This document shows positions 2,534 to 39,354 of a stretch of 64,000 nucleotides of DNA, piece after piece. Position numbers and translations under genes: made by a program. Each line of letters starts with the position of its first letter. Position 1 is the stretch's first letter. The notes below the pieces were generated by a model. The model was not told where the DNA came from. It saw nothing but the letters and a program-made list of their open reading frames with translations, and ran no database searches. Source of the stretch: Mytilus galloprovincialis (Eukaryota; Mollusca; Bivalvia; Mytilida; Mytilidae); contig NC_134838.1 of assembly GCF_965363235.1 (NCBI RefSeq), positions 12,370,441-12,434,440 of the forward strand, written 5' to 3'.

Positions 2534-5500
2534 ATGGCACATCAGTTCTTGTTGCTGTTCATTTGTTGCATAGGATTACAATGGAGTAATGCAAAATATA
2601 CTCCTGATTGGGCCTCTTTGGATACACGACCGTTACCAACATGGTATGACGAAGCCAAATTTGGAATTTTCATTCATTGGGGTGTATTTTCTGTTCCAAG
2701 TTTCCATGGAGCATGGTTTTGGCCATTGTGGAAGTCAAGCAACCCAGCTCCAGATATTGCAGATTTTATGAAAAGAAATTATCCACCTGATTTTACCTAT
2801 GCTGACTTTGCTAAAGATTTCACAGCAGAATTTTTTAATCCAGACGAATGGGCAGACATATTTAAAGCATCGGGAGCAGGGTAAGAATTGGAAGATATAT
2901 TTAAGCAATGGGAACAGGTCACAAGAGAATGCTTATAACGTTAAGATTTACATTACAGCTTTGGGAGGTGTTATGATTGGTATTTATTCTGATAAACTTG
3001 GTCTAAATATCTTTACTTGCTTTTAGTAACTGAAAAACATCCTAAATAGATTTTTTGTCTTTTGTCTTTTCTTTTGTGTGCCTAGAATCTGTCTTACGAG
3101 TAAGGCCCTTTGAATTTGGTTTTGACATGTTGCCTATAGTGTGCTGATACACCACCGTACTAGGTTAATGGGTAGTTGAGAGTTCATAAACATTATTACT
3201 CAACAGATTAATTATATCTCTGTACCAAATGAAGGTAGTCTAGCGGCTGTCGTTGGTTGACGTATGTCATAATCGTTTTTTACTATTATTTTTAGCTTTG
3301 AATAGGTCGCTCATTTTGGATTTTGTTATCTAGAAATGTAGCTGTTTTCATCCTTGATGTTTAGTTGTTATCAAAGTACATTTCATCTTTTTCCATATGT
3401 GCATTTGCTCTGTAGTTATTTTATTTCATGAAAGTTTATATCGTGTTTATTTAAATATTGCAACTTATGAAGGCAGAATTGGCATAGTAATACTTTGCTG
3501 TTTAAATCAAAGGTAAAACTGTCTTGATTTTTTTTTAATATTTTCAGATATGTTGTTCTTACCAGTAAGCATGGCGAAGGATTTCCTAACTGGCCGTCAA
3601 GTCATTCATTTAACTGGAATGCAAAAGCAGTGGGACCAAACAGGGATCTTGTTGGTGGGTAAAAATCAAGTTTATTGAATAACCAGAAACTTCTCTTAAA
3701 AAAAAGATTTTTTCGAATACTGGCTTTAATTCTATATCATGAAATAATTAAAATTCCGTATTTTAGCGGCCTGAGTCATAAATGAATTTGACAGAGGGCG
3801 ATTAATATTACAACGACAAAGCACATACGTCGAAAGGATGTTTCTTATGCACTGTTTGAAAGCAAAATAATCTATGTTAATTTAATGCGTCTTCGATAAA
3901 AACTTTGACAAAAACTTGAGAAATTTGCAATCTTGTATCAAAATTGTCTCCAAGCAATACAAAGCGGTGAATAAAATTTTGATTTAATTTTGTGTTGATA
4001 AATAAATAAATACATATAAATTCTTACATACAGATGACGAAATTCTTAATATTTACTTGTTTATTTCTGTATGTCACCTATTGGTATCATACATATAGAC
4101 TTATAATGTTTAGAGCCTAGAGTTGTCAACACTCAGTGCCGAAGGTGTAAGTTCTTAGACTGTCGTGGATAGTTAAATGTAGCACTGACAAACGATCGAT
4201 ACATGAAGTCTTTATTAATTTTTTTCAGGTGATCTGGCTGCAGCAATACGAAACAGAACTGATATAAAGTTTGGAACATACTACTGTCTTTCAGAATGGC
4301 TTCATCCACTGTATATGAAAGATAAAGCATCAAACTTCACAACTCAGAATTTTGTGAAGGTAAAATTCTATAAACAGAAACAGTCCAGAGTACAATCTAT
4401 GCTTCATATAATACTTATTAAATAAGTAGGTTGATTAGTAAAAAACAATATAATACCAGTGAGCTCTCAATCCAAACACCCACTGAAATCTTGGTATCAT
4501 AAAAATGCTTCTTTATTGTCATATCTGTTGTTTTTATACCTTAGAACTGAGGAAATAATATCCACTCATCACATTAAGAGTAAAATACAAGATATTATGC
4601 TACATAAAAGTCTATCGTTTTGCTAATTAAAGTCGATATATCTGTTTATGATTTTCTTTTGTTGAATTGTTAATTGTATTATCAATTTGATATTTGCTTG
4701 CTCTTTTAGACAAAAACCATTCCTGACCTTTATGAACTAGTAAGCAAATATAAACCAGAAATAGTATGGGCTGATATGGTTGATGATTTAGGATCTTCTT
4801 CGTACTGGACTTCAAAAGAATTTCTTGCTTGGTTGTTCAATGAAAGGTAACTGCACAATATACTTTTACAAGGTATTGACAATTCACTTGGAAACCCAAC
4901 ATATACCCTCACGGCACTTACCAATGAGGAAATCCTGGATAATCATAGGTCTGTTCTATGTTCCTATGTCCTTACAAACAACGGTATATTGCTGGGTATT
5001 CCAAGTGCTCCACGAAACCTCATTCTAAATTATTAACATCTATTTTATCAGCAATCAAAGACGGGCTTCAAAGTTATTGTGAAACTGCCTATTCTAGAGG
5101 TGGCGTGAATCAGATGTGGATACTTAAAAGAGGGACGAAAGATACCAAAGGGACAGTCAAACTCATAAATCTAAAACAAACTGACAACGCCATGGCTAAA
5201 AATGAAAAAGACAAACAGAAAAACAATAGTACACATGACACAACATAGAAAACTAAAGAATAAACCCCACGAACCCCACCAAAAACTAGGGGTGATCTCA
5301 GGTGCTCCGGAAGGGTAAGTAGATCCTGCTCCACATGTGGCATCCGTCGTGTTGCTTATGTGATAACAAATCCGGTAAATAGTCTAATTCGGTAGGTCAC
5401 ATTCATGAAAGGGAAGGGGATTGTAGTTACGACGTAAGGAACATATCCGATATCATTTGTGAAACGGTTATTCCATAACGGTCAACCAACTCGTGATGGC

Positions 5501-8500
5501 GTACGTAAAATTTACGAAGGGATGATTTCAACTTCACCATTTGGAACTCTTGGTTTAATAGCTTCCTTGTGAGCAGTAACCCTCTATCAAGAAAATCATG
5601 ATAGGAAGTGCAAGCACGGGAATATCGTATCAATTGGGAGATATATACCCCGTATGCAGGTGCTGCTGGAATGTTGCTACTTAGAAATGGAAAGTTCACA
5701 ATTGGAAAGCTGAAATCATCTCTTTTGTCGTAAAGTTTTGTTTTCAACCGACCCTCATTGTCAATTTCTAGATGATAGTCAAGATATGAAGCCGACTTAA
5801 CTGTATCTGTAGTATCCTTTATCTCCAATTCGATGGGATAGATGCGTTCCACATAGTCACCAAATTTTGAATTGTTTAGTGAAAGAACGTCATCTATATA
5901 GCGGAAAGTAGAGTTAAAGGATATTGCTAACTTCTTATCTTTCTTCCTAAGAAGTTCCTGCATGAAGTCAGCCTCATAATAATAAAGAAACAAGTCGGCA
6001 AGTAGAGGGGACACAGTTTGTTCCCATTGGGATGCCGACAGTCTGTTGAAAAACACGTCCTCCGAACGTTACAAATATGTTGTCAATCAAGAAATCAAGC
6101 ATCTTGATATTATCGGTTTCAGAGAATTTTTTGTTTGAATCAGAGTGATTCTTTACAAAGTATGATTTATCCCTCCCTAAGACAAGATACTTGTATCTAC
6201 GTTGGTTATTCTTTTTTTATGAAGCAAAGTAATACCAACTCTTTCAATTTGTCTTTTAGTTTGGAATGTGGAATACTTGTGTAAAGAGTAGAAAAGTCAA
6301 ATGTTTTAATACTGTTACAAGATGAAAGAGAGTTAGATTGTATGTACTCTAAAAGATCTTTGGAATTTTTAAGTATCCACATCTGATTCACGCCACCTCT
6401 AGAATAGGCAGTTTCACAATAACTTTGAAGCCCGTCTTTGATTGCTGATAAAATAGATGTATTAAAAATTCCAAAGATCTTTTAAAGTACATACAATCTA
6501 ACTCTATTTCATCTTGTAATAGTATTAAAACATTTGTCTTTTCTACACTTTATACAAGTATTTCACATTCCAAACTAAAAGACAAATTGAAAGAATAGGT
6601 ATTGCTTTGTTTCATAAAAAAGAATGACCAAAGAAGATACAAGTATCTTGTCTTAGGAAGGGATAAATCCTACTTTGTAAAGGATCACTCTGATTCAAAC
6701 AAAAAATTCTCTGAAACTGACATTATCAAGATGCTTGATTTCTTGATTGACAACATATTTGTTACGTTCGGAGGACGTGTTTTCCACAGACTATTGGCAT
6801 TCCGATGGGAACGAAGTGTGTCCCTCTTCTTGCCGACTTGTTTCTTTATTATTATGAGGCTGACTTCACACAGGAACTTCTTAGGAAGAAATATAAGAAG
6901 TTATCAATATCCTTTAACTCTACTTTCCGCTATATAGATGATGTTCTTTCACTATATAATTCCGGAGTACCTGAGATCACCCCTAGTTTTTGGTGGGGTT
7001 CGTGTTGTTTATTCTTTAGTTTTCTATTTTGTGTCATGTTTACTATTGTTTGTCTGTTTGTCCTTTTCATTTTTAGCCATGGCGTTGTCAGAGTATTTTC
7101 AATTTATGAGTTTGACTGTCCCTCTAGTATCATTCGTCCTTCTTTTACACTTTCATTTTAATTGTAAACCATTATTTTTGCAACACTTTTTAAAAATCTG
7201 GTTAGGTATATTATTTTTGTGTAAAACTTATTCCGTTTTGTAAAAGCGTACTTAATATACGTCGATATGAATTTATACCATAACATTATCCAGAATACTA
7301 TCATACATAAGAAATAGTATGGACTGAGGGCTTTTAGAATTACATATAGACAGCTCATTCAGCCTTGACATATTTCTAAATTATTTGGTTTTACATTACA
7401 AACATAGTTTTTAGCTGAAGGCTTTGTTTACCTTTTTCGGTAGGAGAAAACCGAATTTTAATGTGATGAAAATCCCGCACCAGGAGTCGGATTTCAGCTG
7501 GCCCATAAACAAAATGTGTACTAGTTAAATGAAATTGGACGTCATACTAAACTCCAAAATTTAAAATGAACTGTAATTAAAAAACATACAAGACTAACAT
7601 TTGTCAGCACAAATATATACAACTACAGTGATTTTTTTGTACTTTTCTAGATCGGCAAAAAACGTGTGTGCACACTTAGATATAAAAATAAGAAGTGAAA
7701 TGATTGGCCATGAGACAAATCTCCTCTAGAAACTAAATGACGTAGAAGTTTACAACAATTGGTCACTCTACACCCTTCAACAATGAGCAAAATAAATACC
7801 GCATAGTGAACCATAAAAGGTCCCGAAATGACGAAATATAAAACAATTCATAGGAGAATTAAACAGTCCGAATTATGAGTAAACCAATAAACGAAAAACA
7901 AATACAATTAAAAACCAATTGTTCAAAGAACAATTGAAGGTCTTTCCACAAGTAGAGATCTATTTTATTATCAAAATATTAAAAATCAATCTAAAATGTC
8001 AGTTCCTATGGCTTTATAATTATAAATATGAATTCAAAGCAAAGGTCAAAATCTGGATCGTGCAAATTACCTATGACCTTGACCTTAATTTCAAGGTCAT
8101 AAACCAAGGATCTCAAATCAAAAGACCCTAGGTTTTTATTATGTATGGTTAATGAGTTATATCACTTTAAGCATAATTCCAAATATAAGATGGGCGAAAA
8201 CTCCTATTTATTGTTTACGCACCCTTTCAACCAAAATTTATAAGTAACGGCATGTCGCAACTAACAATTTAGTGAAAATAAGATGTTGATATGTTATAAG
8301 GTTTTGGAAATTAGTAAAAATAAGCCAAAATAAAAATTTAGAATATGACCTTGACCTTTGACCTTGACCTTATTTTCATTTTTTTGGACGAAGGAACTTA
8401 AATCCAAAGACCCTAGGCCTATATCAATGATGGTTTACCAGTTAGAAACGCATATCACTTATATCAAATGCATAAGTGGAAATAACTCGCATATGGAGTC

Positions 8501-11500
8501 TCCGGATAGCTTCGGTCCAAATGAATATCCTAATCCTGAAGAAGTAACGAGCAATTTGGTAAAATAAATTTGTCGTAATCTTGCAAAGGAGTAGTGGCCA
8601 CAAGAAAAACAGTGTTTGGGGAGATAACTCTTACAACGTAAAGTATTTTGTTACGCAGTTGTAAATTTTTAAAGCGTATAAACTATACGACATCATATTT
8701 CAAATATCTAAGCGACATCTTTTGAAACATCAATACTACGCAAGAAAAAAATTTAGGCGGAAGAAAAAAAAAAAAAATAATAATCAGAACAAATTCAATA
8801 GGTCTTTCCACGGAAAGGTGGAAAGACCTAATAAAAGACAATCACTGAATTACAGGCTCCTGACTTTGAAACGGCAGATTCAGAATGAGGCTGTTGTAAC
8901 TATTGTTTCACCATACCATATTGTGTGCCTGTATCAAGTCTGATTCGTGTATTTCTAGTTGTTGCTTTTCTCCGAAGGAACCGAAAATGTCTGTGTGGTT
9001 GGTAACATAAGGTGTCTTTACATTTTTTAAATCTTTTCACCTCTTTTCCACTCGTTTACTTTCAGTCCAGTAAAGGACACTGTTGTGACAAATGACCGCT
9101 TTGGCCAAGATTGTAAATGCAAACATGGTAGCTACAAGACATGTACAGATAAATTCAACCCAGGTTAGTGAATAAATACTTTGCACAGCGCCAATGTGGG
9201 GAAACCAATTATCACCGAAAAGGTAACGAAAAGTGTAAAAAAGATAGTATTAATCGGTACTGAAATTTAAGAAAAAACCTAAGACACTGAATCATTTAGA
9301 ACTATCATGTCGAAGACAAAGCGGTACTCATGGAAAACAAATAAGATATTTATCAAAAAGTAACAGATTGTGTCTTAACTAATTATCTAATAGTAAAGAT
9401 CTTTCGGATTGCAACCAGAAAGTTGATTGACAGGTTTATACAATTCACTACATTTTTTTTTGTCGAATTTACCGTTTGGATTCGTAATGAATAGAAAAAA
9501 ACAACGTGCACAAAGAAGTTTAATATATAAGCAGGCATTGGTTCAATGACTTCCTCAACATACTAATTACCAAAAACCTTGTTCCCACTGACTTTAATTG
9601 TGCCTATACAATTTCTCGTGTGGTCAATAATTGAATTAATAAATTCCAAGCTTGAGGTAAGTTGTAAGCCTATAGCTAGCTGAAAGTACGTTGATTTTGT
9701 TGAACGAGGAATACTGCTTTCTCAAAAGTTGCTAAGACAGGGCTATGAATCAATCAAATTAAGGTCACCACTCAAGAAATTTTACGGTCGCCATCATGAG
9801 CTGATTGGCCATTATGACAAAAGTGTGTCAGAAATCATATCTGATATTCTTCCTCAGTCATTATAACCTTCCATCAATACCGAACTGAACATAGAAATAA
9901 CACGACGGGTGCCGTATACGGTGCAGGAAATGCTTACCCTTCCGGAGCACCTGATTTCACTCCCGGTTTCTAGTGGAGTTCGTGTTGTTTCTTAATTATT
10001 ATTTATAACTGTTGATGTAAATGTCCTTTGGTTTTGTGAGTCTTTGTTTACTTCTTGGTTTTGTGAGTCTTTGTTTACTTCTTGGTTTTGTGAGTCTTTG
10101 TTTACTTCTTGGTTTTGTGAGTCTTTGTTTACTCCTTGGTTTTGATTGTTATTGTCTTGTACGTCTAGGCAGGGTACATTTCTTTTTATTCTCGTTATTA
10201 TGATTAGGTTCTTTGCATTAAGTAGACCTGTTGGTGACCTTCTGCTGTTGTTTTTTTCTATGGTCGGGTTGTTGTCTCTTTGGCACATTCCCCATTTCCA
10301 TTCTTAATTTTATTATCATACTTGTCAGTTGTAGTATATAACCTATCTGACCAGATAGTAATACAGTTGTAGTTATAACTGTGTTTTAATCTTATTCATA
10401 ATATGTTAATAATCATAGGTAATAACATATTAAGCACTGTGATTATATCCAATGATACTGGTGCAAATGCTTTCTCTTTCAACTTTCAGGTGTTTTACAG
10501 AAATTCAAATGGGAAAATTGTATGACTATAGATAGATACGCCTGGGGGTACCGAAGGAATGCTGTTGTTGGAGACTTTCTGACTATTCATGAAATCATTT
10601 CAACCTTTGCATCCACAATAAGGTAAGTAAAATATACTCATGGAAAAGAAATGTAAGCATTAGATTCAAGATACTTTTAAAAATTGTCTGGACTCTTATC
10701 ACCATTAAAGAGTCCCAAGCATTAACTTTAAACGTGTTATTTTAAAAGTACTGGTAATATAAAATACAAGGGGAGTTGAAGGTCTTAGATAAAGACTTGT
10801 TTTAATAAACATTTTTAATATTTAAAGCTTAATCGATAACACTTTTAATGACAATACGCAATATGCAATATCATTTTTATCACTACTTATGTTTGATCGT
10901 AATTGTACAAAACTTTACAACTTGTTAGATTATGATTAACAGATTTGCATAAGGGTAGATTCTCCAGTCGGTTGAATTTTCCAAAGTCAGTTGAATTTTT
11001 CAAAATACACGGGGAGATGTGCATGTTGGTATGATATTTCAGTTCAGTGAGTTTTTTACTAGATTAATGGCTCATCGGACATAAATCCGTTGGCCCTACC
11101 CAGATTTTACTTTGGCATCACAAGTTCTCAAAAAATATTCATTGAATCAACATCAACACTTGATATCTTGTTACATACATCATAATATGATGATATTTAG
11201 GAGGTAGTTCTATTTGAAAATATTATTCTTGCTTATTATGTCATAGTTGTGGCGGTAATATGCTGATGAATGTAGGACCAACAAAATTTGGGAAAATCAT
11301 GCCAATATTTGAAGAAAGACTCCGTCAGTTTGGCCAATGGTTGAAGGTGAATGGAGAGGGAGTTTACAGTACAGTTCCATGGAGTCACCAGAATGACACA
11401 GTAATCAGAAATACTTGGTATGATATCTTTTAAGTTGCATAACACGAAACTGTAAACGGTATACAAAACAAAGAAATAAAGAATTGAATTGTTATCTTTA

Positions 11501-12090
11501 TACATAAACTGTGATTTGCAAGACATACTGATGTAAATACACTGGGTACTGGCATTCGTCTATCTTTTCGGTATGAATATCAAGATAAATGTCAAATATG
11601 AATTACATAAATTTGTTCTTACTTATTTGGCACCAAAATGATTGTGTAATTTAAGTAATTAAATAAAAATAATAATAATGGTAAGAAACACAGTTGACTT
11701 ACAGCAATTTCACAGCGAAGAAGTCTACAGATAAATGAATAGTTCTCTTGGCTCCATGGTTTGGATATAACATTATTATTCATCACACATTGAATGTTTC
11801 AACTGTTAAACCCATGCTGCTTTTACAGGTATACAAAACGACAAATGGAGAAGGAAATAACTGTGGTGTATGTATTTCTCCTTTCATGGCCTGAAGACAC
11901 AGTTCTGAAATTAGGAGCACCAATCCCATCAAAGCAAACAGAGGTCAGCATGCTCGGTTATCCAGACAAATTTGTTTGGAAGGCTGGTCCAGGAGGCAAA
12001 GGAATTTATGTCACTATACCAATCATACCGTGGAACAAACTACCATGCGAATGGGCATGGGTACTTAAACTAACACATATATCAAATTAG
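2534..12090 (+). CDS. FUCA1-like: Alpha-L-fucosidase-like protein, GH29 (copy 1), 8 exons
   Basis: Coding exons: 2534-2880, 3548-3654, 4229-4359, 4710-4846, 9066-9163, 10490-10622, 11247-11417, 11829-12090. They join in frame to 461 aa, close to human FUCA1, with GT-AG sites throughout. Family role: hydrolysis of terminal alpha-L-fucose from glycans in lysosomes or as a secreted enzyme. A signal peptide occupies residues 1-20, ending SNA before KYTPDW. The GH29 barrel carries FGIFIHWG (His48), TSKHGEGF (124-125), WAD (Asp217, predicted nucleophile), NDRFG, CTDKF (Asp269) and KWENC (Glu282, classical acid/base position). A C-terminal beta domain starts near residue 375. Oddities: the usual SEW is GAW (Ala60) and the usual His-His is His-Gly (Gly125); both positions line the fucose pocket in known structures. 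Intron 4 is 4.2 kb because of retroelement insertions. The gene is intact; activity is uncertain. Confidence 0.95.
5037..6461. repeat. Inverted repeat arms (5037-5130 and 6368-6461)
   Basis: The 94-bp block at 5037-5130 on the plus strand is an almost perfect reverse complement of 6368-6461. Both carry the same piece of Penelope-like element (the MNQMWILK coding segment). The arms bracket the minus-strand element body, so the intron RNA could fold back over about 1.3 kb. Confidence 0.85.
5130..6465 (-). mobile_element. Penelope-like retroelement relic (reverse transcriptase portion plus 3' UTR)
   Basis: Translated on the minus strand, this shows [12 protein letters not shown] (an RT motif like FDVxxLYTNIP of Penelope-like elements), a segment [10 protein letters not shown] with the YIDD catalytic motif, then [25 protein letters not shown] and [11 protein letters not shown]. 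This order is typical of PLE reverse transcriptases. The 3' UTR covers roughly 5130-5426. No GIY-YIG endonuclease is visible. The copy is incomplete and broken. It lies antisense within intron 4 of fucosidase copy 1. Confidence 0.8.
6462..7145 (+). mobile_element. Second, internally deleted Penelope-like relic, opposite orientation
   Basis: This is the same family as the minus-strand relic to its left, now on the plus strand. RT motifs around 6500-6950 are followed directly by the 3' UTR (6958-7145), so the C-terminal RT part has been lost. The UTR block beginning CCTGAGATCACCCCTAGTTT is the reverse complement of about 5275-5305. The two relics form a head-to-head pair inside intron 4. The copy is broken. 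Confidence 0.75.
7675..7880 (+). repeat. Dispersed repeat family N (CCTTCAACAATGAGCAA), copy
   Basis: A block containing GATTGGCCATGAGACAAAT, then CCCTTCAACAATGAGCAAAA and GGTCCCGAAATGACG. It matches 44205-44400 and, more loosely, 17980-18200, 14010-14130 and 25045-25145. It is non-coding and of unknown class. Confidence 0.65.
7937..8829. mobile_element. Candidate non-autonomous element with AGGTCTTTCCAC ends and TGACCTTGACCTT blocks
   Basis: AAGGTCTTTCCAC at 7937-7949 is mirrored by GTGGAAAGACCT at 8818-8829. The right end is itself a perfect 12-bp hairpin with a 6-nt loop (8800-8829). Inside are two similar blocks, about 8060-8130 and 8343-8420, each with TGACCTTGACCTT followed by CAAAGACCCTAGG or a near match. 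I could not define a target-site duplication, so the outer boundaries are tentative. It lies in intron 4 of copy 1. Confidence 0.45.
9697..10000 (+). mobile_element. Penelope-like element 3' remnant
   Basis: The plus strand retains the C-terminal end of the same RT family ([20 protein letters not shown] region) and the start of its 3' UTR, with the block CTTCCGGAGCACCTGATTTC seen in the other copies. It is a short, broken remnant just downstream of exon 5 of fucosidase copy 1. Confidence 0.7.
10021..10145 (+). repeat. 27-bp tandem repeat, about 4.5 units
   Basis: The unit is GGTTTTGTGAGTCTTTGTTTACTTCTT (27 bp), almost identical in each copy. It sits between the Penelope-like remnant and a family E repeat tail, inside intron 5 of copy 1. 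The open frames across it on both strands (GFVSLCLLL and QNQEVNKDS repeats) simply reflect the period being a multiple of three. Confidence 0.9.
10220..10308 (+). repeat. Dispersed repeat family E tail (GGTCGGGTTGTTGTCTCTTT)
   Basis: The block runs from AGACCTGTTGGTGACCTTC to CACATTCCCCATTTCCATTC. It is shared with 21845-21950 and 27590-27665. Fuller copies begin with a GACGTC-ATTATC block and GGGGCCAGCTG. Class unknown. Confidence 0.7.
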
Positions 12091-16228: not shown

Positions 16229-19200
16229 ATGGCGATTCACTGGTTGTTGATATTCTTTTGTTGCATAGGATTACATTTTAGTAGTGCAAAATATACTCCT
16301 GATTGGGAGTCTTTGGATTCAAGACCTTTACCTAAATGGTATGACGAAACCAAATTTGGAATTTTCATAACTTGGGGTGTTTTTGCTGTTCCAAGTTTCT
16401 CCTCTGAATGGTTTTGGCCACACTGGAAGTCAAAAAACCCAAATCATGATATTGTAAATTTCATGAAAAGGAATTACCGACCTGATTTTACGTATGCTGA
16501 CTTTGCTGCAGACTTCACAGCAGAATTTTTCGATCCAGATGAATGGGCAGATATATTCAAAGCATCTGGAGCAGGGTAAGACGTAATCTCATAATGTGGG
16601 AAATACAGAAATATCATCGACTTAATAGGCATGAAAAAACCGCTATCAGTTGTATAGCATATACATTTAAAGTACAGCTTAACTGGGCATCAACAACATG
16701 TAAAAGAGGATATGAAAAAAAAAGTTTTTGAAATTTTGAATAACTTTCTCAAACTTGTATTCTGTATTTCATCCAAACTTGGACACAAAAAAGGCAACAG
16801 TAGTATACCGCTGTTCGAAAGTCATAAATCGCTTGATAGAAAACAAATCCGGGTTACAAAATAAAACTGAGGTAAACACATCAAATATAAAAGGAAAACA
16901 ACGAAACAACAGAAACACTTAAGTGCAACAAAAAATCAAAGCGACAGAAGCTTGTTTATGATCATAAGATAGTACCCAGAAGTAAAGTAAAACAAAATAT
17001 CCTGTATATCCGTATTTTACTTATAAATGGACTTTTTCTGCAATTAATTAACATTATCGCTATTTTACGAAATTGCCTTTGATCTTACAGACTTATAACT
17101 TTCTTTCTCATTACAGTTGAGTGATATGAAAAATTATTGCTTGAAACTAAGGGAGCATGTGCCCGTTGTCAATGAAAAGTAAAATCACAAAAATACTGAA
17201 CTTAGAGGAAAATCAATTCGGAAAGTTCATAATAGCATGGCAAAATCATATAACAAAACGCATCTAAAACGAATGGACAAGAACTGTCATATTCCTGACT
17301 TGGAAAATGCATTTTCAAATGTAGAAAATGGTGGATTAAACCTGGTTTTATAGCGCTAACCCTCTCACTTTAACAACGTCGTCATATGTAAAATAGCGAT
17401 AAACAGATTTTTATTGTTCATCTCAACTCGGTTGCTTATCTTACTTTCGCCGTACCGACTCAAGGAAATTACTGTATCTAGAGGAATATTTTTAATAACA
17501 TTCCCCCCATTTTTGTTGAGCCTGCGACTAAAAGCAAAAGTAGGCGAGACACTGGGTCTTTCGGAACCTTTACACATTTCTTTTTTTACTGTTTTTACAA
17601 AACTTCAACTTATAACCAACTTCCAACGCCATGGATCAAAAAAAAGAAAAAGACCTACAGTACACAAAACACTAAATACTGATCAAAACAAACCCCATCA
17701 AATATTTGGCGGGATTGTAGTAACGAGATTTGGAAAATATCCGTCGTGGCCGTTGATTTGAAAAAAGATTTAAATACTATGTTGTTTAAATCTATGGTAA
17801 AAATGTATTTTTTGCGATTTTTAGATATGTTGTTTTTACAACTAAACATGGTGGAGGATTCCCCAACTGGCCATCGTCTCATTCTTTTAACTGGAATGCA
17901 AAAGCAGTAGGACCAAACAGAGACATTGTTGGTAGGAAAACGCTTCTTTATGGTATAACCAGAAGACATGTCAATATATCTAGTAGATATAAGAAGATGT
18001 TGTATGAGTACCAATGAAACAAACAACTCTCCATTCAAGTCACAATTTGTAAAAGAAAAACAATTATAGGTCAAAGTACGGTCTTCAACACGGAGTCTTG
18101 GCTCACACCGACCAGTAAGCTATAAAGGGCTCCAAAATATGACTAGTGTAAAACCATTCAAACAAGAAAACCGGTGTCCTAAATAGATACCGACCTTTAC
18201 CCTTACCCGAAACAATAGTGTAACAGTACAACATATAAAGACACACTATAAATATCAATTGAAAAGGCTTAACTCAATTAAAAGACATATAAACTAAGTG
18301 AACGTACACTTAATGAATAAACTTGATCTATGACACAAGGTAAATACAAAATCAATAAAGAAAGGGGTGGATAGATAAAGGCAACAGTAGTATACCGCTG
18401 TGAAAAGTTAGATGATTACAAAAAGTAAACCATTACCTTGAACAAATAACCTTGCCGCCATATAGAAAATTGTAAGCAGGTTAAAGAAAATAATTTTGTT
18501 GTCAGGTGGAGCACGAAAAATATTTTGTATCTATTACAAAATAAATAATTTTGTTGTTCATAGTACGAGAAGCAGAAGTTTGTATGTCCCACATGTTGTA
18601 TCTTCACATTAAGCTGTAATCAGGTTAGAAGAGCCTGCGTCGATAATTATTTGATAGAGGGCAATTCCAATTACACCAAAACAAAAGGCCGGATAACAAA
18701 GTTATAAATTTAGGCTATAGGTATCCTTCAATGCATTATTGTTTACGAAAAATTACATAATGTTCATAACTGCATCAACATAGTCTTCAAACGCAATGTA
18801 TAGCGTATAATAACATTTTGATTTAATGGTTATGTGTAAAGTTGTTGATAAATTTTTCAATTATACCATAAAGACTCTTTATATATTCAAACTGCATTCG
18901 GTTCAGCAATAGGAGAAATAGGTCCAAACTCTTTCACTGAAATTAACAATCAAATGTTATCGTATGTTGTTACTAGAATACGAATCCAATACAAAAAAAG
19001 CGTTAAGTTATTATGTCCGACCTAAGTGCATTATGTTTTGGTCTGTGCGTACGTTCATTGGTTCGTCCGTCCATTCGTCCGTCTGTTCATCCGTCAGTCC
19101 GTCTATCCTCCTATTTTTTTATGAGTCCAATCAAATTGAAACTTAGTACACATATTCCCTATGATATGATAGATTTTTGACGGTCCACTGAAAATATGAA

Positions 19201-22200
19201 ATGATAGAGCGAGTACGACATCCGTGTACTATAGACACATTCTTTTTTTTATATGTTTTTTACATTCAGGAAATTGGTGAAGATGGCATATCTTTGATAC
19301 CACACCTTAATACCGACTATCGGTTCTGCAGCTGCAATAGGTAACACAGATGAACATCTGATGACAAGATTTGAAAATGTATTGCTTAACAATATTAATC
19401 AGAACAGCCGAAAACTAACTTGATGTACACGATAAAACTATCTATTGTTTTAATGGCAATCGGAATCACAGTTCCTATATATTTTTTTCCAAAATTTAAA
19501 TAGTATAACCCTTAATTATAAGGTATAAAGTCTACAGCTGACATGTGATTTCTAGCGCTGCAGATATAAAGTATAACGCTTACAACAGGAGATATTTAAA
19601 GAATATAATTGTTATTTTCAGGCGATTTGGCTGAAGCGATAAGAAACAGAACGGATATAAAGTTTGGAACATACTATTGTCTTTCAGAATGGTTTAATCC
19701 ACTCTATCTAAAAGATAGGGATTCAAATTTCACTACCACGGATTTTGTAAAGGTATATTATATTATTGTGTCTTTATGTAAGTGGTTATCTTAGGTACAA
19801 GGATTGTAATTTAATAAGCCAGACGCGCGTTTCGTCTACACAAGAGTCATCAGTGACTCTCAGATACAATAGTTATAAAGCCAAACAAGTACAAAGTTGA
19901 AGAGCATATATAAGATTTATGTTTCATATAACAAAACAATAAGCGTGTATGAAGGGCATACAACGAATGTACAAATTCCCTTAAGCATGATTATACATTT
20001 ATATGGGTTGCTAAACCAAGTAATGTTGCATTTCGACCATCAAGCTCTCTATTAAAATTCAGTCTGAAAACTTGGTATCATAATGACTCCATTCTGCATG
20101 GGCATGTGATTTGTTTCAGTACCTTTTTAAAAAGCATACGCCCCCCAATGGTTTAAAGTTCAAGCAAATCAAGTCATTCTGTAATTATTCAGGGCAATAT
20201 TAACCTTTGTGTTTTATTTTATAAAACTATTCATCTTATCAAACTAATCTTTTATACTTTTTTTTAAGACAAAAGCCATGCCAGACCTTTATGAATTAGT
20301 AAGCAAATATAAGCCAGAAATTGTATGGGCAGACACGGTGGATAATTTAGGACCTGCCTCATACTGGACATCAAAAGAATTTCTTGCTTGGTTGTACAAC
20401 GAAAGGTAATCTTAAAATCTTGACTCCTCATTGGTTATTATGAAATGTGTTTACGCTTGGTTTATAATGACCATTCATTCTTATGTTTCACCTCATTTAA
20501 CCTTGGCTATGCAGATAAATGTGATAATATAGCTCTTAACTTTTCAACGTATTTATTCATACATTACTTTCAAATATTTGGATTTTAACGTTCCTTTTAA
20601 AGGTAAACATAGAAAAATGCGTCGGACGCAATACATTTTAAATTTATTTCCATTTGTTATAATGACCATAACAAAAGTAAAAACAAATATGTTGTATTGG
20701 GAAGGTATAAATCATACTCTATAAAACTGATTCAACCAACAATTCTATTTGAAACTCACAAAATCATTTGTAACCGAAATTTGAAAAAATGACTGGGACA
20801 GTTTGCTATTACGATGAATGTTCTTGTATTGAAGATACAAAGATGTCTGAAACCGCATAAATGTCATTTAAACATTTACGCCATCAGTGATTTACTTTTT
20901 TATTTGATATTCAAAAGGGGCGTGTGTGCAGACCATAAATTGATTAACCCCCTTTTTCCATGTCTGTACGTAGTAAATCAAGTCTGGTTCATTGTTGATG
21001 TTTCTTGTTCGTACTAAAAAAATTCCAGATGATTCCGGGTGGTTGTGGTGGTTGTTGTTGTCTGTGGTATTGTCAATACTGCTTTGGATCCCTTTTTTCA
21101 ATTTTTCACTCGTTTATCTTATCGAATTTGATGCGACTGTCATACGAGTAAGAGGTTCAGCTAGCTGTAAAACCAAGTTATCCCACCATTTTCTACTTTT
21201 GAAAATGCCTGTACCACGTCAGGAATATGACAGTTATTGTCCATTCGTTTGGTGTGTTTTATCATTTGATTTTGCCCTTTGATTAGGGACTTTCCGTTTT
21301 GAATTTTCCTCGGAGTTCAGTATTTTTGTGATTTTACTTTTTACTTACAGTCCAGTTAAGGATACTGTTGTTACAAATGACCGATGGTGTCAAGAATGTT
21401 TTTGTAAACATGGAGGCTTCAAGACCTGTTCAGATAGATTCAATCCAGGTTAGTGTTTATATGGTAATTGTGACTGTTTTATCTCAGTTTTTTGGCAGAT
21501 AGTATCGGTACACATGTATCATGGTGCTACGAGTGTAAATTCCAACTAGAAATGTTGCCGTTCGGTAGGATTGCACTGCAAAAACATAATATTTTGTCAA
21601 TGAGGGGTGAGTGGTGTTTAAATATTTGACAAAAGGAAACGAAATATGGAATCCAATAGCTTTCTTCAATACCAACAGCAATAGTGATATTGAAGAATAA
21701 AAAAAACGCAGGTAGGAAAAATGCATTTTTAATTTTAGTTTCTTGTGTATAATTCGGAGTTTAGTATGACGTCCATTATCACTTTACTAGTATACATATT
21801 TTTAAGGGGCCAGCTGAAAACCGCCTCCTGGTGCGGGAGTTTCTCGCTACATTAAAGACCCATTGGTGGCCTTCGGCTGTTGCCTGCTCTATGGTCGGGT
21901 TGTTGTCGCTTTGACACATTCTCCATTTCCTTTCTCAATTTTATATCGTATAGTCGGCTATAAAAGGCCCGACTTAACAATACTTTTTTCCTGTTTTGTA
22001 TAAATTATCTTACGAAACATAAGTATAAGTTGTTGCAATTTCTGTTTTTCGATGTTACTAAAAGAGGGGCGAATAAACCTAGAGAGACAGTCAAACTAAC
22101 ATATAATTAGATATAGATAAATACAAAGAACTAATTATAATGCACCGTATACAAATTAATTGAATATGGTCATTTTAAAATTTTCTTTTGTTCAACTTTT

Positions 22201-24407
22201 AGGTGTTTTACAGAAATTCAAATGGGAAAATTGTATGACAATAGACACACACTCATGGGGATACCGCAGAAATTCTAACATCGATGCCTATCTGAGTGTT
22301 CATGATATCATTTCAACTTTTGCATCAACAATCAGGCAAGTAAAATATCTCCATGGCCAGATTGTAAGCAATTGTTCACTTGTGAAAACTAAATGTTTGC
22401 GGTTGATTAAAGATGCATTTACTAGTTATCTGGACTCCGCTCACCATTACTTTTTTATTAGCGGTTCTAACGAGTGTAGTCTATGGACAAACTTTGTAAC
22501 AAATGGAAACCAGATAAACTTAAGGCTCACAGATGTCGACATAGGCGGGTTATCATGAAAGTACTGATTCAATGAAATACAACGTCTTAACTCACATTTT
22601 AAAAGGTTTTTAACACTTGTCCATTAATAGGCATTCATTTAAACACAACCATAATCATAGACAAAGCGTGTCGCTGTGCAAAAACTCATCGACATATTTG
22701 AGAATATATATTCATATATTGTACGACGCTAGATTAAAACTGACGAGGAAAGGTAACACACAGCCACCGAAAGCTTAAGAATAAAAAATTTGCGAAAGCA
22801 AATTTACAGATCTAACATTGTTGGGTTGATGTTTAGACGATTTGTATATACATATATTTATACAGTCATATAAGTCCTCATAGTTGTGATATTTGAATTA
22901 GAAGAGTTATAACAAAAATACTTAATGCAATAGTTGTTAGCAAAATAAACATCACTTTTGTTAACCTTAAACACCAGCCGTAGAACTCAAAATAACACAA
23001 TTGTACATTCATCAACAGACTTTCGATATAACCAACATTTATAAACTGACCATTGTTAATTAAAGCTCATAAATATAACAACGTCCCACCATTGATAAAT
23101 GTTAGATTAGTCTTTTCCGTTCTAAGTATTTATTTTGGGTTCCTTGGTGGTGATGTTGCATTTATTACTTTTCCAGAGATATTAGTTCTTATTTTGTACG
23201 ATATATTTGACAGAAGCATCTCAGAATTCAAGTATCATTATAGTCGTTACTGCTTTTAGCTTTAATGTTTATCATTGACCTTCTATTTGTGTGTGATCAG
23301 GGAAACATATGGGAAATAACATGGATAGGAACAAATAGAACATCGTCATAATCAATGCGAAATGGGAAAGCATATGACGCAGCATTTTTTAAAATTCTAT
23401 CGTGTTACCGTATTCGAATTTTATCATTCGCATCTTATATTTCATTATTTAATACATTTTATAATGTATAAGTATTTTTTTCAATTAAAAAATATCTCTG
23501 ATTTCCTTTAATGATAGTTGTGGTGGTAACATGCTGATGAATGTAGGACCAACAAAAGAAGGGAAAATCATGCCAATATTTGAAGAAAGACTACGTCAGT
23601 TTGGCCAATGGCTGAAGGTCAATGGAGAGGGAGTTTATAGTACGGTCCCATGGAGTCATCAGAAAGATACAGTAACCAAAAATATTTGGTATAAGTATTA
23701 TCAAATTTCACTACACAAAAATAAAAAAAGCGTCATATTAAATATAAATTTTACTGGTTTGTTCCTACTTTTATGGCACCCAAATGATTGTTTAAATTGA
23801 AAAAAAAAATATATATTCAATTAATTGTAAAAAAAACCACAGCAGGATAAAAGCGATTGTTTTGTAAAGTAGTATAAAAATAAATGAGTAGAAAGTAAAA
23901 TCACAAAAATACTGAACTCAGAGGAAAATCCAATCGTAAAGTCCATAATCACATGGCAAAATCAAATGACAAAACACATAAAAAACGAATGGACAAGAAC
24001 TGTCATATTCCTGACTTGGTACAGGCATTTTCGAATGTAGAAAATGGTGGATTGAACCTGGTTTATAGTAGATTATTGGTGCTCTGTATAAATAAAATAC
24101 TTGATATTTGATTAAACGAATCTCTTAAATATGTTACTTTTACAGGTATACTAAACGGACAATGGAGAGTGAGGGAACTGTGGTTTATGCATTTCTTCTT
24201 TCTTGGCCTACAGACGCACTTCTAAATTTAGGGGCACCGATCCCACCACAACAAACAGAAGTCAGCATGCTCGGTTACCCAGACAAATTTATCTGGAAAG
24301 CTGGTCCAGGAGGCAAAGGAATTCATGTCACCATACCAATTATACCGTGGAATAAACTACCGTGCGAATGGGCATGGGTACTTAAACTAACACATATATC
24401 AAATTAG
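16229..24407 (+). CDS. FUCA1-like: Alpha-L-fucosidase-like protein, GH29 (copy 2), 8 exons; pocket His replaced by Thr
   Basis: Coding exons: 16229-16575, 17825-17931, 19622-19752, 20269-20405, 21351-21448, 22203-22335, 23518-23688, 24146-24407. Together they encode 461 aa in frame. Intron 6 begins with GC (CAG|GCAAGT); the others begin with GT. A signal peptide ends at SSA (20). The predicted nucleophile is Asp217 (WAD), with Asp269 (CSDRF) and Glu282 (KWENC) also kept. Two pocket motifs are changed: FGIFIHWG reads FGIFITWG (Thr48), and the His-His-Glu of family members reads His-Gly-Gly (124-126). Glu60 (SEW) is retained. In characterised GH29 enzymes the equivalent His contacts fucose directly. 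The protein may therefore have altered specificity, weak activity, or only sugar binding. Nearest relative in the window is copy 3 on the opposite strand. Confidence 0.95.
16775..16960 (+). repeat. Dispersed repeat family C, copy in intron 1 of copy 2
   Basis: GGCAACAGTAGTATACCGCT is followed by TCATAAATCGCTTGATAGAA and AGGAAAACAACGAAACAACA, matching the other family C copies. Confidence 0.75.
17165..17375 (+). repeat. Dispersed repeat family D (AAGTAAAATCACAAAAATACTG), copy
   Basis: Block order: AAAATCACAAAAATACTGAA, AGAGGAAAATC, CATGGCAAAATCA, GAATGGACAAGAACTGTCAT, CCTGACTTGG, GGTGGATTAAACC. Other copies are at 23885-24075 and 54870-55075 on this strand, and at 21120-21345, 32540-32765, 36590-36815 and 53930-54110 in the opposite orientation. 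It is one of the most frequent repeats in the window. Confidence 0.8.
17640..17757 (-). mobile_element. Penelope-like 3' UTR remnant in intron 1 of copy 2
   Basis: GTACACAAAACACT, then GGCGGGATTGTAGTAACGAG and AAATATCCGTCGTGG, match the 3' UTR of the relic at 5130-6465. It lies 67 bp before exon 2, antisense to the gene. Copy 3 has a longer remnant at the equivalent place and relative orientation (38527-38810). It is a fragment only. Confidence 0.65.
17980..18200 (+). repeat. Dispersed repeat family N, diverged copy
   Basis: AAGAAGATGTTGTATGAGTA, followed by a GGTCTTCAACACGGAG block, resembles the better preserved copy at 44205-44400. Confidence 0.5.
19010..19235 (+). repeat. Dispersed repeat family G (CCGTCC-rich head, GTCCACTGAAAATATG tail)
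   Basis: A TTATGTCCGACC start and a run of CGTCC/CGTCT units are followed by CAAATTGAAACTTAGTACAC and a tail ending CCGTGTACTATAGACACATT. It is the reverse complement of 28195-28480 block by block. It lies in intron 2 of copy 2. Confidence 0.75.
19794..19910 (+). repeat. Dispersed repeat family M, copy 4
   Basis: AAGCCAGACGCGCGTTTCGT with the CAAGAGTCATCAGTGACTCT and AAGTTGAAGAGCATAT tail, starting 41 bp after exon 3 of copy 2. Confidence 0.8.
21120..21345 (-). repeat. Dispersed repeat family D, reverse copy
   Basis: It runs right up to the acceptor of exon 5 of copy 2 (exon begins at 21351). The intron's end, including its pyrimidine tract (TTTTACTTTTTACTTACAG), is therefore repeat-derived or nearly so. 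Matches 36590-36815 and 32540-32765. Confidence 0.75.
21745..21950 (+). repeat. Dispersed repeat family E, full-length copy
   Basis: From GAGTTTAGTATGACGTCCAT through GGGGCCAGCTGAAAACCGCC to GGTCGGGTTGTTGTCGCTTT. Partial copies are at 10220-10308 and 27515-27665; 7480-7560 looks like a reverse copy of the left part. Confidence 0.7.
23885..24075 (+). repeat. Dispersed repeat family D, copy in intron 7 of copy 2
   Basis: AGAAAGTAAAATCACAAAAA to GGTGGATTGAACCTGG; it is one of the least diverged copies of the family. Confidence 0.8.
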
Positions 24408-30036: not shown

Positions 30037-33000
30037 TTAATTTGTTATGTGAGTTAGCTTAAGAAGCCATGCCCATCCGCATGGTAGTTTGTTCCACGGT
30101 ATAATTGGTATAGTGACAATAATTCCTTGGCCTGCTGTGCCAGCTTTCCAGATAAATTTGTCTGGGTAACCGAGCATGCTGACCTCTGTCTGTTGTGAAG
30201 GGATCGGTGCTCCTAATTTCAAAACTTCGTCTGTTGGCCAAGAAAGAAGAAATACATAAACTACAGTTCCCTCACTCTCCATTTCCCGTTTAGTATACCT
30301 GTAAAAGCAACATATCTAAGAGATTCATTCAATCATAAATCAAGTGTATCATTCATGCAGAGACAAAAGATTTACTCATTTATTTTTTAGTATTTTACGA
30401 TGCGCATGCAATTGCTTTTTTTAAACACTATTCAAAATATTTTAATTCAACAATCATTTGGTTGCCAGCAGGGAAGGAATAAACCAGTAAAAAATATATT
30501 CAACATCTCGAAATATAAAAAAGAAAGGCTTTTAATAGAAGACATATATACCACAACAGGCGTGGAGGAACTTTGATTGCGACGTCGGAATTGGGCTTTT
30601 GATTTTAAGGGAATTCGCGGTTTACACTTATCGGGTCTCTGAAATAAATGATGTTTTTTTCTTGAGGATCCGGAAAGAATGATTTTTTTCCGGGAAGTCT
30701 GGATTCAGCTATTCTTTATTTTTCTTTCAGGAATTCGGAATGGTAACTGCTCCCGCTATATATATCGATCCTCTAATTTCCCCCATTTTACAGTTCTGTT
30801 ACTCCTTTTTGTCTTGCTAAAATTGATCAATGTATTCCAATGAATATTCAAGTCGTTAATTTGTCTTTTGTATTTCTTGTTCTCTTTTATGTAGTACAAT
30901 TTAATAATACTTATACCATATATTTTTGGTTACTGTATCATTCTGATGACTCCATGGAACCGTTCCGTAAACTCCCTCTCCATTTATCTTCAACCATTGG
31001 CCAAACTGACGGAGTCTTTCTTCAAATATTGGCATGATTTTACCTTCTTTTGTTGGCCCTACATTCATCAGCATGTTACCACCGCAACTACCACAAAAGG
31101 AAGATTTAGTCATTTTATAAAATTGAAAAATTACTTCCAAAAGATCATTACAAAACGTCTCATTTAACGAGGTTAAAAGTGCAGATAACAACAGCTGAAG
31201 GCAGTATAACATGACAGACTTTTTTTCATAAAACCCATGATGGTAATGATGATGTTCGTTTGTTCCTATCTTTGGTGTTTAAATTTCTCATTGAATTCCT
31301 TAAGCACACTTGTAAAAAAAACCGCTTCAGCCAAACAAGCATTACAAATTAAAGTAAGATATATAAAAAACTAAAATAAGTGCCCCATGACCATCAAGAC
31401 ACTCAAATCAAATAAATGGATAGGAAAAGTCACTCGCTTTAGTTCAACATTCATCAAAAGTTCTAATAGTTATCAGTGGAAAAGAATGGCTGAAAACTAT
31501 TGCAGTATATGCAATCATAAATTTGTTAAAACGTATACTTTATAATTTCAAATATCACAATTATGAGGACTTCTTCTGGAAGTATTATTCAAAAAAGCAG
31601 ATACTGTTGATAATAAATTGAAAAAAGATGAGAACCTGCCATTTATATATACTCTTTAACATGTCGGTGTGATTTTCAACAACCAAACATTCTCCATGAC
31701 TGTCGTTGTTTTTAATTGTTTATTATTTAAAGGTCAGATGTAAAAAAAAAAAACTTAAAAATATGATTAAAGATCTTGTATTTTATATAATCAGTAATTT
31801 CATAATTGCCTGTCAATTTGTCTTCATATGGACATGTGCGCCTTATGTATATTTGGTTTTCTATTGTTATAAAGTTTATGGTCCAAAGACTACATTTTGA
31901 AACATATAAGAAATAGTAAATGGTAATCGGAGTCCAGATAAGTAGTAACAGTCTAGTCATGGTGATATTTTACTTGCCTGATTGTAGACGCAAAAGTTGA
32001 AATGATATCATGAACACTCAGATAGTCTTCGATGTTGGAATTTCTGCGATATCCCCAAGACCTTCTGTCTATTGTCATGCAATTTTCCCATTTAAATTTC
32101 TGTAATACACCTGAAAGTTGAATAAGAGAGCTTAAAAAAAATACCGGAATCATTGAATTAGTTTTATGCTTGATATTTAGTTGTTTATATCTATTAATCT
32201 CTAATAAGAAGGATTGCAACACAGACATTGCAACAACTTATATTAATCCTTTATATTTCATTATTTGTCTGCTACATTAAGATGTTAAGATTGGACTTAA
32301 AGAAACAAATCTAACTACTCCACAGACTCAACATTAACCAATGAATCAATAAACAAGTATACGGTCATGTGAGTGCCTTTTATAGTCGACTGTACTGTAT
32401 GGGTTTGTTTCATTGTTGAGGGCCGTACGATCGCCTATTATTGCATATCTAAACTTCTTTTGAGTTCATAATTGCTGTACCCATATTTTTACTATTTTAT
32501 TTATTATGTCTGTTTAGTTCACGCATCATTGTAAATATAACGGAATTTGATGAGACTATCATCAAAGTGAGAAGGTTAGCGCTATAAAACCGGGTTTAAT
32601 CCACCATTTTCTACATTTGAAAATGTCTGTACCAAGTCAGGAATATGACAGTTATTGTCCATTCGTTTTTGATGTGTTTTGTTATTTGATTTTGCCATGT
32701 GATTATGGACTTTCCGATTAGATTTTCCTCTAAGTTCAGTATTTTTGTGAATTTACTTTTTTTTATATAAGTTTCCATAACTACACGTTATACCATAAAA
32801 GCAATAACCCTGTGAATCGATAAGTCATTTGCATCAGGCTAGGAAAATTGTCCTTGAAATTGAAGCAGCAATATTACAATCGAGGAAATAACCATACACA
32901 CTAAAACAAGAGTGCACACGCTGAAATGTCTCGGCTTCTTTACTAATCATTGATATTATGTTGATAGACCTAAATATAAAGCTTTATTACAACTGTCACA

Positions 33001-39000: not shown

Positions 39001-39354
39001 ATCTTACCCTGCTCCTGATGCTTTAAATATATCTGCCCATTCATCTGGATTGAAAAATTCTGCAGTGAAATCTGCAGCAAAGTCAGCATAGGTAAAATCA
39101 GGTCGGTAATTCCTTTTCATGAAATTTACAATATCTCGATTTGGGTGTTTTGCCTTCCAGTGTGGCCAAAACCATTCAGAGGAGAAACTTGGAACAGCAA
39201 AAACACCCCATGTTATGAAAATTCCAAATTTGGTTTCGTCATACCATTTTGGTAACGGTCTTGAATCCAAAGAGGCCCAATCAGGAGTATATTTTGCACT
39301 ACTACAATGTAATCCTATGCAACAAATGAATATCAACAACCAGTGAATCGCCAT
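30037..39354 (-). CDS. FUCA1-like: Alpha-L-fucosidase-like protein, GH29 (copy 3, minus strand), 8 exons; pocket His replaced by Thr
   Basis: Coding exons in transcript order: 39008-39354, 38352-38458, 36972-37102, 36016-36152, 35620-35717, 31978-32110, 30917-31087, 30037-30298 (all minus strand). They encode 461 aa in frame. Intron 6 starts with GC, as in copy 2. A signal peptide ends at SSA (20). FGIFITWG has Thr48 in place of the family His; the usual His-His-Glu is His-Gly-Gly (124-126). Glu60, the predicted nucleophile Asp217 (WADMVDD), Asp269 (CTDKF) and Glu282 (KWENC) are present. The first exon differs from copy 2 at few residues, and introns 1 and 2 share unique blocks and a retroelement remnant with copy 2, so the pair arose by inverted duplication. 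It is structurally intact; enzyme activity is doubtful for the same reason as copy 2. Confidence 0.95.
32540..32765 (-). repeat. Dispersed repeat family D, reverse copy in intron 5 of copy 3
   Basis: GGAATTTGATGAGACTATCA, ACCATTTTCTACATTTGAAA, CAAGTCAGGAATATGACAGT and GATTATGGACTTTCCGAT. It matches 21120-21345. Confidence 0.8.
32905..34000 (+). repeat. Dispersed repeat family F, full-length copy with AGGTCAAGGTCA units and 3' hairpin
   Basis: It starts ACAAGAGTGCACACGCTGAA and contains six units of about 147 bp, each beginning CCATGAAAATGAGGTCAAGG. It ends in a CCG-rich run and an exact-stem hairpin (33964-33998: GTCGAGC arm, TGCAAC-AAAA-GTTGCA centre, GCTCGAC arm). AGGTCAAGGTCA lies at 33055-33066, 33205-33216, 33352-33363 and 33499-33510, with degenerate versions near 33645 and 33800. 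A second full copy is at 57493-58757. There is no frame. It lies in intron 5 of copy 3. Confidence 0.85.
34150..34320 (-). mobile_element. Penelope-like 3' UTR remnant
   Basis: AGAGGGGCGAAAGATACCAG through AACTGACAACACCATGGCTT to ACACAACATAGAAAACTTAA. It matches 5130-5250 of the larger relic. Fragment only. Confidence 0.75.
35289..35365 (-). repeat. Dispersed repeat family M, reverse fragment
   Basis: CTGATGAGTCTTATGTAGAC, then GGCGTATTAAATTATAATCC and TGGTACCTTTGATAACTATT: the reversed head of the family M variant seen at 781-936. A further head fragment, ATCATAGATACCAGG, is at 35838-35852. Confidence 0.7.
36590..36815 (-). repeat. Dispersed repeat family D, reverse copy in intron 3 of copy 3
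   Basis: ATGGAATTTGATTCGACTGT to TCGGAGTTCAGTATTTTTAT, closely matching 21120-21345 of copy 2. In copy 2 the element is in intron 4, so this is an independent insertion and not shared by descent. Confidence 0.75.
38527..38810 (+). mobile_element. Penelope-like 3' UTR remnant in intron 1 of copy 3
   Basis: GACGGATATGTTCC, ACACAAGTAACACGACTGAT, GGAGCACCTGAGATCACCCC and AGCAATGGCGTTGTCAG follow the family's 3' UTR. It lies 69 bp from exon 2, antisense to the gene, the same place and relative orientation as 17640-17757 in copy 2. It is broken and non-coding. Confidence 0.75.

What the first reader, a model, noticed from the sequence alone, without database searches (positions are those of the whole stretch)
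16364..16378. Pocket histidine replaced by threonine in copy 2 (FGIFITWG)
Seen: residue 48 is Thr (ATA ACT TGG) in copy 2, whereas copies 1 and 4 have His. Known: this His (His34 in Thermotoga maritima fucosidase) binds fucose and is nearly invariant in GH29. The next family pair His-His-Glu is also His-Gly-Gly (124-126). Inferred: changed substrate, weak activity or a lectin-like pseudoenzyme, kept as an open 461-aa frame with its nucleophile intact.
Basis: partly seen in the sequence, partly recalled or inferred. Interest (0 to 1): 0.75.

Follow-up and report, generated by a model that had tools for sequence, protein, structure and literature searches.

The report
Mussel fucosidase with remodelled sugar pocket
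A mussel genome carries a large family of fucose-removing enzyme genes in which a normally fixed sugar-gripping histidine has been replaced several times over while the cutting machinery was kept, which suggests that some copies now act on unusual fucose-containing sugars; no activity has been tested.

Summary
Copy 2 is an intact 8-exon, 461-residue GH29 gene. Codon 48 (16370-16372, ACT) is Thr where the family has a fucose-binding His (His63 in human FUCA1), and residues 124-126 are His-Gly-Gly. Copy 3 shares both changes with another Thr codon, so a base error is unlikely. Copies 1 and 4 keep this His but also lack the second His of the pair. The genome is probably Mytilus. Of 28 GH29 genes with a readable first exon, 5 lack His63, in at least four independent events; ten of ten sampled prokaryotic relatives keep it. 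Nucleophile, acid/base and four other checked residues are kept in 20 of 20 genes read that far. dN/dS between copies 2 and 3 is 0.13: purifying selection. Amino-acid change was concentrated on their shared stem branch, around the pocket, but a control branch is raised too. Best reading: a secreted GH29 hydrolase with a changed sugar-binding pocket, possibly for substituted fucose. A lectin-like or weak enzyme is not excluded; activity is untested. New variant of a known kind.

The parts
16229..16575 (+). copy 2 (gene E), exon 1, with FGIFITWG; start looks like a signal peptide by eye only
   Evidence: spliced model; Pfam PF01120 126.1 bits
16370..16372 (+). copy 2 codon 48 ACT = Thr at the human FUCA1 His63 / T. 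maritima His34 column
17825..17931 (+). copy 2 exon 2
17847..17855 (+). copy 2 residues 124-126 His-Gly-Gly (human H138-H139-E140 columns)
19622..19752 (+). copy 2 exon 3, holds Tyr at the Y182 column (19672-19674)
20269..20405 (+). copy 2 exon 4, holds the nucleophile Asp217 (20332-20334; human D230 column)
21351..21448 (+). copy 2 exon 5, holds Arg252 (R264 column) and acid/base Asp269 (21433-21435; human D281 column, D276 in Armstrong numbering)
22203..22335 (+). copy 2 exon 6, holds Glu282 (E294 column); followed by a GC donor
23518..23688 (+). copy 2 exon 7
24146..24407 (+). copy 2 exon 8 with stop
30037..39354 (-). copy 3 (gene F), 8 exons, 461 aa; Thr48 (ACA, 39213-39211), His-Gly-Gly; exons 4-5 nearest to gene C outside the window
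2534..12090 (+). copy 1 (gene D), 8 exons, 461 aa; His48 kept, KHGEG
43088..51770 (+). copy 4 (gene G), 8 exons, 457 aa; His46 kept, KHCEG

Best explanation
Copy 2 is a functional GH29 protein of a mussel, probably secreted or lysosomal (inferred from its start by eye and from the family), one of a tandem cluster. It has kept the retaining-glycosidase residues (shown by sequence) but lost two of the four side chains named as holding fucose, and the neighbouring Glu (shown). The second His was lost first, in the ancestor of this subcluster; the first His and the Glu were lost later, in the ancestor of copies 2 and 3 (inferred from the tree). The frame has since been held by purifying selection (shown). 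The most likely function is hydrolysis of an alpha-L-fucoside whose sugar differs from plain terminal fucose, for example fucose carrying a methyl, sulfate or glucuronyl group, admitted because small residues replace two His and a Glu (inferred, untested).
For: Intact 8-exon frames with conserved phases. Nucleophile, acid/base, Arg264, Glu294, His138 and Tyr182 columns kept in 20 of 20 genes read that far (the other 8 of 28 genes were read in exons 1-2 or exon 1 only). omega 0.130 for copies 2-3 against 0.126 for two His63-bearing siblings. Branch model: shared stem of copies 2 and 3 omega 1.02 against 0.116 elsewhere, 2dL 15.8; their tips 0.137. At 256 columns identical in genes A, C, D and G, copies 2 and 3 share 9 derived residues, 7 of them in the two pocket segments (segments chosen after seeing the sites); the sister pair C and D has 1 such derived residue in 254 columns, outside the pocket loops. 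Mussel N-glycans carry fucose modified by glucuronic acid and branched fucose (PMC6994554 and PMC8699351, passages).
Against: No activity, expression or structure was tested. FUCA2 shows that intact catalytic residues do not guarantee activity. The raised-branch signal is not specific: the sister stem C/D also gave 2dL 9.4 in the branch model, and in the branch-site test 2dL 5.4 against 6.1 for copies 2/3; two-base codon changes such as CAT to ACT can inflate that test (recalled). Pocket variation is not confined to this lineage: a Glu column next to the conserved Trp is Ala or Val in 7 of 20 genes, while copies 2 and 3 keep Glu there. Which fucose hydroxyl each lost residue contacts was not established, so the substituted-fucose idea rests on side-chain size.
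Confidence: 0.5

Rival explanations
1. Lectin-like pseudoenzyme: copy 2 binds fucosylated or other glycans without cutting them, for example in immunity or gamete recognition.
For: Two fucose-binding His lost; frame under purifying selection. FUCA2 is a precedent for an animal GH29 without detected activity. A Mytilus alpha-L-fucosidase contig stands in a table of genes changed in hemocytes after a second Vibrio contact, paralogue unknown (PMC6697025, passage).
Against: Nucleophile and acid/base are kept in 20 of 20 genes read that far, altered ones included. Losing sugar-holding residues is an odd way to make a fucose binder.
Confidence: 0.25
2. Weakened ordinary alpha-L-fucosidase: the changes lower affinity for fucose, tolerated because other copies do the work, with no new substrate.
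For: 28 genes with a readable first exon give redundancy. The His is lost at least four times independently, as expected if the position is tolerant when backed up. Another pocket column also varies in 7 of 20 genes.
Against: omega of copies 2-3 is as low as that of His63-bearing siblings (0.130 against 0.126) and the catalytic residues do not drift. Derived changes cluster round the pocket.
Confidence: 0.2
3. Artefact: assembly or base error, or a dead pseudogene.
For: None found at these loci; elsewhere the 27 Mb and 30 Mb gene pairs of this assembly read alike in the pieces seen and may be one segment assembled twice.
Against: Two loci carry Thr with different codons; no stops or frameshifts in 8 exons; neutrality rejected, 2dL 83.3.
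Confidence: 0.05

Closest known systems
Human FUCA1, tissue alpha-L-fucosidase (7pls/7pm4), GH29 subfamily A
   Same: Full-length similarity of the family (559.8 bits for the intronless paralogue; 125.2 bits for copy 2 exon 1); same nucleophile and Asp acid/base columns
   Different: Copy 2 lacks the His63 and His139 fucose contacts and the following Glu; residues after the nucleophile altered
Human FUCA2, plasma alpha-L-fucosidase
   Same: Animal GH29 with catalytic residues kept and a function in doubt (PMC12427801, abstract and sections)
   Different: Its His columns were not compared here
T. maritima alpha-L-fucosidase (1hl8/2wsp)
   Same: Aligned family member with the His column
   Different: Keeps His at the column; Glu acid/base instead of Asp
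BpGH29 exo-alpha-L-galactosidase (7ljj/7snk)
   Same: A GH29 member with a changed sugar substrate
   Different: Keeps the His at this column (alignment), so its specificity change is by another route

Membership tests
GH29 / Pfam Alpha_L_fucos (PF01120) | Sequence similarity above the curated cut-off | tested here: met
   Copy 2 exon 1 alone 126.1 bits against 25.2
GH29 / Pfam Alpha_L_fucos (PF01120) | Conserved Asp nucleophile | tested here: met
   Asp217 of copy 2; 20 of 20 genes read that far
GH29 / Pfam Alpha_L_fucos (PF01120) | Animal-type Asp acid/base (D281 in P04066 numbering) | tested here: met
   Asp269 of copy 2; 20 of 20 genes read that far
Active alpha-L-fucosidase (EC 3.2.1.51) | Fucose-binding His63 | tested here: not met
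   Thr48 in copies 2 and 3
Active alpha-L-fucosidase (EC 3.2.1.51) | Fucose-binding His138 and Tyr182 | tested here: met
   His124 and Tyr169 of copy 2
Active alpha-L-fucosidase (EC 3.2.1.51) | Fucose-binding His139 | tested here: not met
   Gly125 in copy 2; Gly in copies 1 and 3, Cys in copy 4
Active alpha-L-fucosidase (EC 3.2.1.51) | Hydrolysis of alpha-L-fucosides | not testable with these tools
   needs purified protein
Glycosidase pseudoenzyme | Loss of catalytic residues | tested here: not met
   nucleophile and acid/base kept
Glycosidase pseudoenzyme | Absence of catalytic activity | not testable with these tools
   needs purified protein

The most novel reading that the evidence does not exclude
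A mussel lineage of GH29 enzymes has opened its sugar pocket stepwise (second His to Cys or Gly, then first His to Thr and Glu to Gly) so as to cleave substituted fucose, such as glucuronylated, methylated or sulfated fucose of mussel or algal glycans. No animal GH29 with that specificity is known to me (recalled, not searched for).
Probability: 0.25. Interest if true: 0.65.

Novelty: new variant of a known kind. Interest (0 to 1): 0.45.

Why it matters
Fucosidases are generally read as active from their sequence family. Here a residue taken as fixed for holding fucose is replaced at least four times in one genome while the catalytic residues, wherever read, are untouched. That gives a natural series of variants for asking what the pocket histidines do. 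If the substituted-fucose reading holds, it would supply enzymes for mollusc or algal glycans that ordinary fucosidases may not process.

Tried and rejected
Prokaryotic homologues by pattern scan of genome contigs: two scans matched 190 and 43 stretches but confirmed no relative. Conservation was tested instead on ten of the 298 plasmid records with a tblastn match, picked by eye for diversity from the 30 listed; in that alignment the Tyr182 and Arg264 columns are kept in 7 of 10 only, the nucleophile in 10 of 10.

Error or pseudogene: rejected. Positive selection on the copies 2/3 stem: the branch-site test gave 2dL 6.1, but the control sister branch gave 5.4, so no claim of positive selection is made. 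The first splice script gave wrong junctions and was replaced by a dynamic-programming aligner.

Which fucose hydroxyl each His contacts: the T. maritima and Fusarium structure papers are not held, and passages searched in other papers did not say it for these His columns. Prior reports of this variant or of a bivalve GH29 expansion: searches showed none in the titles and abstract starts listed; the lists were cut (15 or 20 shown of 54 to 2,932 papers), so this is not proof of absence. You et al. (PMC6718869, abstract and section parts) already report gene duplication of metazoan GH29 in general.

Full report
What is there. The window (64 kb, 33% GC) lies on contig C1 of a 1.385 Gb unnamed animal genome and belongs to a run of nine GH29 genes at C1:12.24-12.46 Mb. 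That genome has 17 matches to the Pfam Myticin-prepro family; myticins are, as I recall, known only from Mytilus, so it is probably a mussel of that genus. Copies 1 to 4 of the window each give 8 exons with the same intron phases (2,1,0,2,1,2,2) and no stop or frameshift; three code for 461 residues and copy 4 for 457. Copies 2 and 3 share a GC-AG intron 6 where copies 1 and 4 have GT-AG.

The residue. Codon 48 of copy 2 is ACT (Thr, 16370-16372), in FGIFITWG. By phmmer alignment to the solved human and T. maritima enzymes this is the conserved His column. You et al. 2019 (PMC6718869, section read) name H63, H138, H139 and Y182 of human FUCA1 as residues binding fucose. The nucleophile and acid/base columns used here are D225 and D276 of Armstrong et al. 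(PMC9548408, section read), which are D230 and D281 in the numbering of PMC12427801 (section read). Residues 124-126 of copy 2 are His-Gly-Gly: His138 is kept, and His139 and the next Glu are Gly. Copy 3 has the same set, with codon ACA for Thr. Copies 1 and 4 keep His63 but have Gly and Cys at His139.

How unusual. Ten prokaryotic GH29 genes taken from plasmids all keep His at the His63 column, and 9 of 10 keep His139; these ten were picked by eye from 298 records with a match. Human FUCA1, T. maritima fucosidase and the BpGH29 L-galactosidase also keep it. In the mussel genome, one search lists 28 GH29 genes with a readable first exon (5 intronless, 23 with introns); the tool calls such counts lower bounds, and one further last exon (C1:26.385 Mb) without a first exon was not counted. 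His63 is replaced in 5 of 28: copies 2 and 3 (Thr), C9_55 (Thr), gene I (Asn) and C1_104.825 (Val). His139 is replaced in 7 of the 27 where exon 2 was read (Gly in 5, Cys in 2). The 27 Mb and 30 Mb genes may be one segment counted twice, so distinct genes may be 26 or fewer. Trees with and without the pocket columns place the five His63-lacking genes in four separate places next to His-bearing relatives (20 genes, proteins; 14 genes, nucleotides, exons 4-5 and C7_53 left out, and 28 genes, exons 1-2). Support for copies 2+3 is 70, 97 and 100 in these three trees; for genes H+I 100, 100 and 95; for C9_55 with its His-bearing relatives 85, 98 and 84; for C1_104.825 with its relatives 68 in the one tree that has it. 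The exon 1-2 tree does not resolve whether copies 2+3 are nearer to A or to C+D; the other two join them to C+D at 99.

What was kept. The nucleophile, acid/base, Glu294, Arg264, Tyr182 and His138 columns are unchanged in 20 of 20 genes with those columns read (15 spliced models, some cut short at the last exon, and 5 intronless). The other 8 genes were read in exons 1 and 2 (7) or exon 1 (1) only. Changing the acid/base Asp of FUCA1 to Asn lowered its activity strongly. Not everything else in the pocket is fixed: the Glu column before the conserved Trp (which I equate with T. maritima Glu66 by eye) is Ala in copy 1 and Val in C3_250 and the five intronless genes, but Glu in copies 2 and 3, and the residues after the nucleophile vary.

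Selection. By pairwise codon likelihood, copies 2 and 3 have omega 0.130 (dN 0.046, dS 0.352, 375 codons; exons 4-5 and the first 12 alignment columns left out), and omega 1 is rejected by 2dL 83.3. His63-bearing siblings C and D give 0.126, H and I 0.163, and C9_55 and C9_90 0.050, the last with dS 3.9, near saturation; C or D against copy 2 give 0.198 and 0.190. Exons 4-5 of copy 3 are 96-98% identical to gene C but 83% to copy 2, which looks like gene conversion, and were therefore left out. A branch model gives the shared stem of copies 2 and 3 omega 1.02 against 0.116 elsewhere (2dL 15.8); with the tips given their own class, these have 0.137. At 256 columns identical in genes A, C, D and G, copies 2 and 3 share nine derived residues, seven of them in the two segments around His63 and His138-139 (hypergeometric 6e-6 for those segments, 9e-4 for all pocket loops; segments chosen after seeing the sites); the same count for C and D finds one residue, outside the loops. 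Against this: the sister stem C/D also shows a raised omega (5.6, 2dL 9.4), and a branch-site test gives 2dL 6.1 for copies 2/3 but 5.4 for that control branch. I therefore claim concentrated change followed by constraint, not proven positive selection. The gene I tip is also raised (0.63, 2dL 8.1), and that of its His-bearing sister H somewhat (0.30, 2dL 4.0).

What it probably does. The pattern, catalytic residues fixed while sugar-holding residues change repeatedly, fits a changed sugar specificity better than a dead enzyme. Loss of two His and a Glu to Thr, Gly and Gly should enlarge the pocket (inference from side-chain size). Mussel N-glycans are unusual in having fucose modified by glucuronic acid and branched fucose (PMC6994554 and PMC8699351, passages), and some bacterial GH29 enzymes release fucose from sulfated oligosaccharides (PMC11189522, passage). 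A substrate with substituted fucose is thus plausible but untested. FUCA2 with intact catalytic residues showed no activity in one study (PMC12427801, abstract and sections), so a binding protein or weak enzyme remains possible. Two Mytilus galloprovincialis studies mention an alpha-L-fucosidase transcript, up in gill after diarrhetic toxins (PMC6215123, passages) or in a table of hemocyte genes changed after a second Vibrio contact (PMC6697025, passage); the passages do not say which paralogue.

Verdict. Observation confirmed and extended; interpretation partly supported. It is a GH29 member by sequence; it should not be filed as a proven alpha-L-fucosidase. Interest is moderate, because the recurrent loss of a near-fixed binding residue in one genome is unexpected, but the function is unproven and gene-family diversification in bivalves is common.

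Noticed in passing
window 22336 (+) and 31977 (-), donor of intron 6 in copies 2 and 3: Copies 2 and 3 share a GC-AG intron (AG|GCAAGT) where copies 1 and 4 have GT-AG.
   Followed up: partly
window 35620-36152 (copy 3 exons 4-5): 96-98% identical to gene C at C1:12.359 Mb but 83% to copy 2; looks like gene conversion between cluster members.
   Followed up: partly
window 551-2045: Isolated short GH29-like stretches upstream of copy 1 (three weak tblastn matches, E 0.016 to 5e-5), perhaps a decayed copy.
   Followed up: no
window 46622-46921 (copy 4 exon 5): A 134-base near-tandem duplication covers the end of exon 5; a weak second exon-5-like match lies at 46877-46921.
   Followed up: no
copy 4 (window 43088-51770) and gene C3_250: Both carry Cys at the His139, Ser184 and Gly231 columns together, a possible thiol cluster in the pocket; 7 of 20 genes have Cys at the Ser184 column.
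   Followed up: no
L001-L005 (C1:11.27 and 11.31 Mb; C12:71.84-71.86 Mb): Five intronless full-length GH29 genes (452-466 aa), all with His63 and the His-His pair.
   Followed up: partly
G000 C1 27.10/27.54 Mb and 30.32/30.74 Mb: GH29 genes in pairs about 3.2 Mb apart that read alike in the exon 1 and 2 pieces seen: a recent segmental duplication or an assembly duplicate.
   Followed up: no
window 33021-33667 and 57602-58370: Two arrays of a similar 147-base repeat.
   Followed up: no
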